Shown here: positions 44,008-46,445 of the stretch, piece by piece
How the letters are laid out: the number at the start of each line of letters is the position of its first letter
Numbering within the stretch: the first letter of the stretch is position 1
Assembly (NCBI GenBank): GCA_023159155.1
Contig: JAJNNX010000050.1
Coordinates: forward strand, 371,223 to 435,222
Length of the DNA stretch: 64,000 nucleotides
Source: Ustulina deusta
Taxonomy: Eukaryota; Ascomycota; Sordariomycetes; Xylariales; Xylariaceae
Direction: 5' to 3'
The notes under the pieces: model-generated
Seen by the model: only the letters and a program-made list of their open reading frames with translations
Told to the model about the DNA's origin: nothing
Databases searched by the model: none
Translations under genes and position numbers: made by a program

Positions 44008-46445
44008 ATGTCGATGGATTTGGATACGCCGATGCCAATAGCGGCTCCGGCGCACACCCAGGGCGTCACCGCAACGTATGTCACGAATCGAATCTTCACC
44101 TACACCCACTCAGCCATATGGATCTGAGTGTGCCTGACGGCGCAGAGCTATAGCCACGCTCCCTGTCGAATAAGGCAACGGGTCTACGCAACACGTGTAC
44201 ATCATTTATGGTACAGAGAGCTAACCACCATGCCAGGATTCTCTGTGCGGATTGCGGAGCGCCCATCGATGGAATGACAGCGATCGACGCCAGGTGTTAC
44301 GACTGCTTCAAGCTCACAAAAGACATCTCTCAAGGCATCCAGAGGGAGGCGACGATACACTTCTGCAGAGACTGTGATAGATGGCTTCAACGGTACGTCC
44401 ATGCTGTTCTTGTTCCCAACTGTATCTGTCGTGTCGTGACTATTCATGCTAACCATTTCACAGTAAGTAGGCAACGACGCGATCTACGCATCGCGAATCC
44501 GCAAGCACCACTATCGATGATCCCATAATTCCGAGTTCGAAGCTGACGCGACATGTTCCAACATTGCAGCGCCTACCAGTTGGGTTACCGCCGCGCCCGA
44601 GAGCCGAGAACTCCTTGCCCTATGCCTCAAAAAACTAAGTCTCAACCGGACGAGAATAATAGACGCCTCGTTCATTTGGACTGAGCCCCACAGCCGGCGA
44701 GTAAGAGTCAAGTTAGTAGTACAGGCGGCTGTGGCAGAAGACAAGGTTATGCAGCAGGCTCTCGAAATTACATACGGTGAGTAATATCTCGTTTTCTCTC
44801 CCTATTGCGCCTGTCTTAACAAGAAAGCATACTTTCCCATCATTTAAGTATCCCAACTCTCCGCGTTTCTTTGACTTTGAGTGGAAATCTTACTCATCCG
44901 AGTTTAGTCGTTGCCCATCAACAATGTCCAGAGTGTGCCAAGTCATACACAGCAAATGTGTGGAGGGCTAGCGTACAAGTACGGCAAGTAAGTACTTTAT
45001 TCACGGTCTCTTATTTGCCGATCTTAGATTACAAAAAGCTAACTCGAGCTGCAGAAAGTTCTCCACGTAAGGAAAATCCTGGCTGCGATCCTCGGTCTAA
45101 TGCAATACATGAACTGGGTTATATCGATATTTAATTAGTACTGATGAATATGGCAGAAACGTACATTTCTGTACCTTGAACAGCTGATATTAAAACACGG
45201 AGCACACCGGGACACCATCAACATTAAAGAGGCCAAGGACGGGATTGACTTCTTCTTCGGCGCGAGGAACCAGGCGGAGAAGGTATGTTATGTTGTCACA
45301 GATCAGTTCTCCGCCGATATAACCACTAACTGGTTCCTAGTTTGTTGACTTCCTCAACTCGGTTGTGCCAGTGCGGGTCAAGAAATCGTCTGAGCTTATC
45401 TCTCAGGACAGCCACACAGCTAAAAAGAGTTTCAAATTCTCCTTTTCGGTAGAGCTAATCCCGGTATGCAAGGATGACTTGGTCGCTCTCCCGATATCGC
45501 TTGCAAAACAAGCCGGAAACATTTCTCCTCTCTCGATATGTTATAAGATTGGGACATCGGTCTACTTATTAGATACCGCTACACTCCAGACGGCAGAAAT
45601 CAGTTCCCCGGTATACTGGCGAGCTCCATTTGGAGCACTAGCAGAAGCGAAGGACTTGGTTGAGTTCATTGTCATGGATTGTGAGTTAGTTGGGTACGTA
45701 TATCTAGTCTCTTTAATTCCGAGGAATATTGGTTACACTTTGAAGAATACCCCTTTTAGTTCATTGGACATCGAATTCCATATCTATGAGTCAGGCCTTA
45801 GCCCGCCGAATGTCACACATGAAGTCTAAAATGGAACTTCATACTCTATTCCCCTGATGCTGAATCTGGAGAATGAGTACTGATGACATTTTCAGTCCCA
45901 CGAAGGGGAAATGGGTTCTAGCCGACGTGGAAGTAGCAAGAGCTACGGACCTGGGTACAAACAACAAGACGTACTGGGCACGTACGCATTTGGGTGGCCT
46001 TCTTCATGCGGGTGATTCCGTCATGGGCTATATGCTGTCGGGTACCGTTTTTAACAACCTAGAATTCGAGGCTATCGAGCAGTCTCACACATACGCCTCT
46101 AGGATACCGGATGCCGTCATCGTCAAGAAACACTACCCGAACCGTATAAGGAACAGAAAGCGGCAGTGGAAGGTCAAGCGTATGGCAAAGGATGAGGGCG
46201 AGTTGCTACCGAAGAAAGCCGACCAGGAGCGTATGGATCGTGAGTTCGAACAATTCTTACAGGACATTGAAGGCGACGAAGAGTACCGAGCTGGCGTACA
46301 GCTGTACAAACAGCCTAAAAGGAAAACTCAGCCGGATGAGATGTCGATGGCGACGACAGATGACGAGGATGATGATGGGCCGCAGGTCAATGTAGACGAA
46401 CTGCTGGATGACTTTGATGAGCTTACGATGGAAGACAACGAATAG
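44008..46445 (+). CDS. NMD3: 60S ribosomal export adaptor Nmd3
   Basis: Eight exons: 44008-44075, 44237-44391, 44570-44776, 44908-44987, 45055-45066, 45157-45282, 45341-45693 and 45896-46445 (1551 nt, 516 residues). Nmd3 binds the late pre-60S particle and, through its leucine-rich export signal and Crm1, carries it to the cytoplasm. Zinc-binding CxxC pairs stand at 26/29, 43/46, 66/69 and 150/153. Family blocks are plain: HFCRDCDRWLQPP, ESRELLALCLKKL, FIWTEPHSRR, EQLILKHGAHRDTINIKEAK and THLGGLLHAGDSVMGY. The C-terminal part has a basic stretch (NRIRNRKRQWKVKR) and an acidic leucine-containing tail (VNVDELLDDFDEL), fitting the NLS and NES. Exon 5 is only 12 nt (KVLH). The second intron is a probable stwintron, listed separately. 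Confidence 0.93.
44392..44569 (+). other. Stwintron [D1,2] in NMD3 (intron inside a split donor)
   Basis: An internal intron (44393-44463, GTACGT to CACAG, branch GCTAAC) sits between the first G (44392) and the second base (T, 44464) of an external donor. Its removal creates GTAAGT, and the external intron then runs to the CAG at 44567-44569 with branch GCTGAC. Two-step removal joins CAA-C to CG-CCT-ACC-AGT-TGG, giving LQPPTSW, the sequence expected from the Nmd3 family. A single 44393-44569 intron shifts the frame and meets a stop. A single intron to the alternative AG at 44578-44579 keeps frame but replaces PPTS with Arg. Confidence 0.8.

What the first reader, a model, noticed from the sequence alone, without database searches (positions are those of the whole stretch)
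44392..44569. Stwintron in NMD3: an intron splits the donor of another intron
Seen: exon 2 ends CAAC, then G, then GTACGT...CACAG, then TAAGTAGG...TTGCAG. Removing the inner intron first recreates GTAAGT, and the second step gives LQPPTSW in frame. Known: Nmd3 proteins have LQPP followed closely by W at this point. A single intron here shifts the frame; the only in-frame single-intron rival loses the PP. Stwintrons of the [D1,2] kind are described in filamentous ascomycetes but are rare.
Basis: partly seen in the sequence, partly recalled or inferred. Interest (0 to 1): 0.85.

Follow-up and report, generated by a model that had tools for sequence, protein, structure and literature searches.

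The report
Intron nested inside another intron's donor
A fungal gene for a ribosome-export protein contains two nested introns that must be cut out one after the other; the kind is already well known in this group of fungi, so this is a convincing but ordinary new example.

Summary
In a fungal NMD3 gene (44008-46445, +), a 71-nt intron (44393-44463) sits between G1 and T2 of the donor of a 107-nt intron (G44392 + 44464-44569). Two-step removal gives a full-length 516-aa NMD3 with LQPPTSW, the best-scoring of the models tried. Both introns have donor, branch point and acceptor, and the published [D1,2] stwintron formula matches exactly 44392-44569; 12 of 20,000 shuffled interiors match it. Independent support: the four listed database proteins named Xylaria are all abnormal at precisely this junction. 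One X. arbuscula protein is the frameshift expected when one intronic G is kept, consistent with the in-frame protein over 126 nt. This argues against a sequencing error and for conservation in several Xylariaceae, though their DNA was not seen. [D1,2] stwintrons are a published class, common in this order (more than 1500 in Hypoxylaceae, PMC9024468; 215 sequence-similar ones in Xylariaceae, PMC12403724), not rare. No paper held mentions both stwintrons and NMD3; supplementary tables were not read. No RNA data, so the order of splicing is inferred. New member of a known kind.

The parts
44008..46445 (+). NMD3 (60S ribosomal export protein) gene, start to stop codon; exons 44008-44075, 44237-44391, 44570-44776, 44908-44987, 45055-45066, 45157-45282, 45341-45693, 45896-46445
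   Evidence: spliced model translates to 516 aa; 92% identical to Nemania serpens NMD3; Pfam NMD3/NMD3_OB/NMD_SH3
44392..44569 (+). whole [D1,2] stwintron, 178 nt, phase 1
   Evidence: published model A formula matches exactly this span
44393..44463 (+). internal intron, 71 nt, GTACGT...CAG
   Evidence: sequence; donor, branch point, acceptor
44392..44392 (+). G1 of the split donor of the external intron
   Evidence: sequence
44464..44569 (+). rest of the external intron (with G44392: 107 nt, GTAAGT...CAG)
   Evidence: sequence
44448..44453 (+). branch-point motif of the internal intron, GCTAAC, 7 nt from its CAG
44461..44468 (+). hybrid motif CAG|TAAGT joining internal acceptor and remainder of the external donor
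44542..44547 (+). branch-point motif of the external intron, GCTGAC, 19 nt from its CAG
44570..44579 (+). first 10 nt of the next exon; a single intron ending at 44579 would remove them (LQRW rival)

Best explanation
Intron 2 of this Xylariaceae NMD3 gene is a [D1,2] spliceosomal twin intron. The U2 spliceosome first removes the internal intron 44393-44463. This joins G44392 to TAAGT and so creates the donor GTAAGT, after which the external intron (G44392 + 44464-44569) is removed, giving ...DRWLQ/PPTSWV... in frame. Shown by sequence: the five motifs, the frame, the protein conservation, and abnormal annotations at the same junction in three Xylaria species. Inferred: the order of the two reactions, the existence of the intermediate, and the internal acceptor in the relatives.
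For: Exact anatomy. Best-scoring model against an orthologue. The published search formula fits exactly, against 12 of 20,000 shuffles. The internal branch-point-to-acceptor distance of 7 nt is the commonest published value (49 of 81 unique, 34 of 38 sister stwintrons) and the external 19 nt is the typical sister value (23 of 25 full-length; PMC9024468). 169 of 175 listed relatives have PPxxW. The 4 listed proteins named Xylaria all fail at this junction: P0002 LQRW, P0023 LQR then about 45 residues missing, P0026 LQR then a frameshift, P0003 CRD|SPSSW. P0026 is what the X. arbuscula exon gives with one retained G: 126 nt consistent in both frames, against a best of 19 in 2000 shuffles.
Against: No RNA reads. 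DNA of the Xylaria relatives was not available, so their internal acceptors and branch points are unseen. Database entries stand for clusters: P0001 (Nemania serpens, intact PPSSW) stands for 48 sequences whose names I did not see and which may include normal Xylaria proteins. Nemania serpens and Poronia punctata (P0004) are annotated with PPSSW, so the state of their intron is unknown. Published stwintrons show internal symmetry; here my whole-length score is ordinary (1138 of 2000 shuffles at least as high) and so is the pairing energy of the two ends (1383 of 2000 at least as strong). The whole-intron RNA fold is weak (181 of 200 shuffles fold at least as well).
Confidence: 0.94

Rival explanations
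1. A single canonical intron 44393-44579 is used, giving LQRWVT, an NMD3 lacking PPTS.
For: In frame, GTACGT donor, CCAG acceptor; a database protein of Xylaria flabelliformis is annotated just so (P0002).
Against: It removes a motif that 169 of 175 listed relatives keep and that the NMD3 chains of solved structures aligned keep. It passes over the first CAG after the branch point. In X. arbuscula the exon start deduced from two proteins is CGCCGTCGAG, so the equivalent acceptor there would be GAG, which PMC9024468 calls rare in filamentous fungi. It leaves the CTAACN7CAG|TAAGT core unexplained.
Confidence: 0.03
2. The extra G at 44392 is a sequencing or assembly error; the true gene has one ordinary 177-nt intron C|GTACGT...TTGCAG|CG in phase 1.
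For: Without one G a single intron is in frame, and other introns of this gene are also long (161, 131, 202 nt).
Against: LQR occurs in three database proteins from three Xylaria species (P0002, P0023, P0026), as expected if the same G were kept; in P0023 this is ambiguous because the normal protein also has R before VKL. The X. arbuscula frameshift fits the retained G over 126 nt. The strict nested-intron motif set appears in 0 of 20,000 shuffles.
Confidence: 0.02
3. In addition to two-step splicing, the locus is alternatively spliced in a useful way: some transcripts use the distal sites 44393-44569 as one intron, keeping one G and shifting the frame, and so lower NMD3 output.
For: Such missplicing of [D1,2] stwintrons is published as occasional or infrequent (PMC12403724, PMC9024468); the frameshifted product here stops 38 residues after LQ.
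Against: No RNA here; published as infrequent; end-pairing energy ordinary. One 10-nt complementary stretch near the ends is reached by only 8 of 500 shuffles and could favour it, but is weak evidence.
Confidence: 0.15

Closest known systems
Uniquely occurring [D1,2] stwintrons of Hypoxylaceae (PMC9024468: abstract, sections 2.1, 3.3, 3.5, first part of the results, and passages seen)
   Same: Internal intron between G1 and T2 of the external donor; fits search model A exactly; phase 1; no other copy found in its own genome; probably at a position shared by related species.
   Different: External branch-point-to-acceptor distance is 19 nt instead of the usual 6; no symmetry above chance; family most likely Xylariaceae; NMD3 not named in the main text.
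Sister (propagating) [D1,2] stwintrons of Hypoxylaceae and Xylariaceae (PMC12403724: abstract, introduction, first third of the results, and passages seen)
   Same: Same type; same 7-nt and 19-nt distances as the Hypoxylon sisters of PMC9024468; similar length (178 nt against 185 nt in one published cluster); same order.
   Different: No sequence-similar copy found in the own genome; position probably not species-specific, since Xylaria annotations fail at the same site; no clear terminal inverted repeat.
[D5,6] stwintron of the reticulon-like gene of Pezizomycotina (PMC6616335: start of abstract in a listing only; details from section 2.1 of PMC9024468)
   Same: Internal intron splits an external donor.
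   Different: Splits between positions 5 and 6; other gene; [quoted passage not shown]

Membership tests
[D1,2] stwintron | Internal U2 intron lies between nt 1 and 2 of the external donor | tested here: met
   G44392 | 44393-44463 | TAAGT
[D1,2] stwintron | Both introns have canonical donor, branch point and acceptor at allowed distances (published model A) | tested here: met
   formula matches exactly 44392-44569
[D1,2] stwintron | Removal of both restores the reading frame; distal single removal leaves one G and shifts it | tested here: met
[D1,2] stwintron | Position supported by orthologues | tested here: inconclusive
   protein level only: 4 of 4 listed proteins named Xylaria abnormal at this junction, 3 with LQR (one ambiguous); one frameshift fits a retained G over 126 nt; donor side supported, internal acceptor unseen
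[D1,2] stwintron | Splicing intermediate retaining only the external intron | not testable with these tools
   needs RNA
[D1,2] stwintron | Underlying symmetry with own reverse complement (reported for all 117 in PMC9024468; not strictly defining) | tested here: inconclusive
   no excess with my simple score (1138 of 2000 shuffles at least as high); the published measure was not reproduced
Sister (propagating) stwintron | Sequence-similar copies elsewhere in the genome | tested here: not met
   only itself found at E up to 10
Overlapping [A2,3] stwintron reading | Exon after the stwintron begins with G | tested here: not met
   44570 is C

The most novel reading that the evidence does not exclude
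The NMD3 stwintron is an old, position-conserved member that still has the geometry of the propagating type (7 and 19 nt): a fossil of a past wave of stwintron propagation in the ancestor of Xylaria and its relatives. If its distal missplicing is regulated, it would also be a built-in switch that lowers output of a ribosome-export factor.
Probability: 0.12. Interest if true: 0.5.

Novelty: new member of a known kind. Interest (0 to 1): 0.3.

Why it matters
It adds a housekeeping gene with a strongly constrained protein to the hosts of stwintrons. It also shows a practical point: the four listed public NMD3 entries named Xylaria are abnormal at one spot, apparently because gene predictors cannot model nested introns (a weakness that PMC12403724 states, passage). 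Such frameshift or LQR-type scars at a conserved spot could be used to find stwintrons from protein databases alone.

Tried and rejected
Tried without gain: NMD3 scans of viral contigs (1 stretch matched, no relative) and of genome contigs (29 stretches, no relative), as expected for a fungal gene. RNA fold and symmetry scores were ordinary. One 10-nt complementary stretch (two G-U pairs) between the first and last 45 nt is reached by 8 of 500 shuffles; its length recalls the published 10-nt near-terminal repeats, but it lies 36-45 nt from the 5' end and 17-26 nt from the 3' end, overlapping the external branch point, so I do not rely on it. The pattern GGTANGTN30-59CTAAC occurs 3 times in the window against 0.73 expected, which tells little. 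The whole genome gives no file (stated). The formula's second hit at 45282 was rejected because it starts at an ordinary intron.

Rejected readings: single in-frame intron 44393-44579; one-base sequencing error; [A2,3] reading; sister copy of a propagating family. The two other relatives without PPxxW among 175 are P0157 (QPPAHY) and P0167 (QAQSTY); both keep the length of the segment, so they do not support a deletion, but they show that PP..W is not absolute. The first count used too narrow an expression (QPP only: 20 with, 95 without, 5 unmatched) and was replaced (4 of 120 without PPxxW; 6 of 175).

Full report
The gene. The window lies in a 56-Mb genome. Its NMD3 gene runs 44008-46445 on the + strand. 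With seven interruptions removed it codes for 516 aa without a stop, matches Pfam NMD3, NMD3_OB and NMD_SH3 above their cut-offs, and is 92% identical over full length to NMD3 of Nemania serpens. The next best hits are Xylaria and Poronia (120 of 3468 hits listed). The source is therefore most likely a member of the Xylariaceae; this is inference from one gene. NMD3 chains of solved structures (yeast and human, organisms recalled) align through the junction with QPP..W.

The observation. The internal intron 44393-44463 has donor GTACGT, branch point GCTAAC 7 nt before CAG, and length 71. The external intron, G44392 + 44464-44569, has donor GTAAGT once joined, branch point GCTGAC 19 nt before CAG, and length 107. 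The exon after it starts with CG, so the codon C|CG (phase 1) gives proline: LQ-P-P-T-S-W.

Single-intron readings. Removing 44393-44569 in one step shifts the frame; removing only 44393-44463 reaches a stop after two more codons; 44393-44579 keeps the frame but yields LQRW. Of 454 donor/acceptor pairs around the site, 91 single introns stayed open and in frame. Against the N. serpens protein the stwintron model scored 704, the best single intron 681 (GTGTCG donor, extra residues), LQRW 671.

Chance. The published search formula for [D1,2] stwintrons (PMC9024468, section 2.1) matches exactly 44392-44569. With both ends kept and the interior dinucleotide-shuffled, 12 of 20,000 sequences match; a stricter consensus version matches 0 of 20,000; 95 of 20,000 have an internal intron plus split donor. 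In the window the formula matches at two starts. The other, 45282, is an ordinary 58-nt NMD3 intron. The formula alone had a published success rate of just over 30% (90 of 282), so by itself it would not be enough.

Evidence from relatives. Two searches listed 175 distinct relatives (each the best 120 of a longer list; each entry may stand for a cluster). 169 have PPxxW in the first 160 residues and six do not. Four of the six are the four entries named Xylaria: X. flabelliformis P0002 (LQRWV), X. hypoxylon P0023 (LQR, then about 45 residues missing), X. arbuscula P0026 (LQR, then about 40 residues of foreign sequence) and X. arbuscula P0003 (CRD|SPSSW, as if a cryptic upstream donor had been chosen). 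The other two, P0157 and P0167, keep the segment length with different residues. DRWLQR occurs in P0002, P0023 and P0026 only. The R arises if a predictor uses a donor one base after the frame-correct position, that is, if one intronic G is kept, the mark of a [D1,2] stwintron; in P0023 it is ambiguous, since the normal protein also has R before VKL. For X. arbuscula this can be tested: one DNA sequence can encode both the in-frame protein of P0003 and, read after a retained G, the foreign stretch of P0026, over 126 nt. Other leads fail within 5 nt, and the best of 2000 shuffles reaches 19 nt. The same deduction fixes the exon start as CGCCGTCGAG, so the acceptor that would yield LQRW there is GAG. 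The shared signature makes a sequencing error in this window unlikely and suggests that the stwintron is shared by several Xylariaceae.

Limits of that evidence. I could not see the relatives' DNA (searches gave no relative), so the internal acceptor in those species is unseen. The N. serpens entry stands for 48 sequences whose names I did not see; normal Xylaria proteins may be among them. N. serpens and Poronia are annotated with an intact PPSSW and may lack the internal intron or may have been annotated from transcripts.

Place among known systems. [D1,2] stwintrons are an established class. More than 1500 are reported in Hypoxylaceae, 117 in one Hypoxylon genome, and 68 of 81 unique ones at positions shared by all or most species of that family (PMC9024468). 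PMC12403724 reports 288 sequence-similar ones in 14 Xylariales, 215 of them in Xylariaceae, including a Nemania. The NMD3 case has no second copy in its genome at E up to 10, like the unique group, yet has the 7-nt and 19-nt distances typical of the propagating sister group. It shows no whole-length symmetry or end-pairing energy above chance in my tests, apart from one 10-nt complementary stretch reached by 8 of 500 shuffles. The literature reports underlying symmetry in all 117; my score is not theirs, so this is inconclusive. No paper in the library holds both 'stwintron' and 'nmd3', and both main papers have 0 mentions of nmd3 in the main text. Supplementary tables were not read.

Same genome. 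The core CTAACN5-9YAGTAAGT occurs 30 times in the genome against 16 for the reversed pattern and 17 for a permuted one. Of the 30 loci, five have a nested-intron reading with at least 15 open codons on each side: NMD3 (L019), L005 with 243 and 470 open codons, L014, L017 (a fibrillarin match below Pfam's cut-off), and doubtfully L011 (no Pfam match). These are candidates only; frames were chosen after looking, and in-frame single introns also exist for L005, L011, L014 and L017.

Mechanism and verdict. Most likely the internal intron is removed first by intron definition, creating GTAAGT, and the external intron second. The order rests on anatomy and on published cases, not on RNA from this organism. 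Occasional direct use of the distal sites, leaving one G and a frameshift, is expected from the literature. The finding is real, well supported and ordinary for its order: a new member of a known kind.

Noticed in passing
L005 1457-1608, L014 1437-1630, L017 1444-1626 (own genome): Three further candidate [D1,2] stwintrons in the same genome read through in frame; L017 may be the fibrillarin gene (Pfam match below cut-off).
   Followed up: partly
proteins P0002, P0003, P0023, P0026: Public Xylaria NMD3 entries are abnormal at one conserved junction, apparently because of the nested intron; P0002 also seems to keep an intron further on (an extra stretch before FVDFL).
   Followed up: yes
44076-44236, 44777-44907, 45694-45895: Other NMD3 introns are also long (161, 131 and 202 nt) but are in frame as single canonical introns.
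   Followed up: partly
45282-45340: The published stwintron formula also fires at this ordinary 58-nt intron: a false positive.
   Followed up: yes
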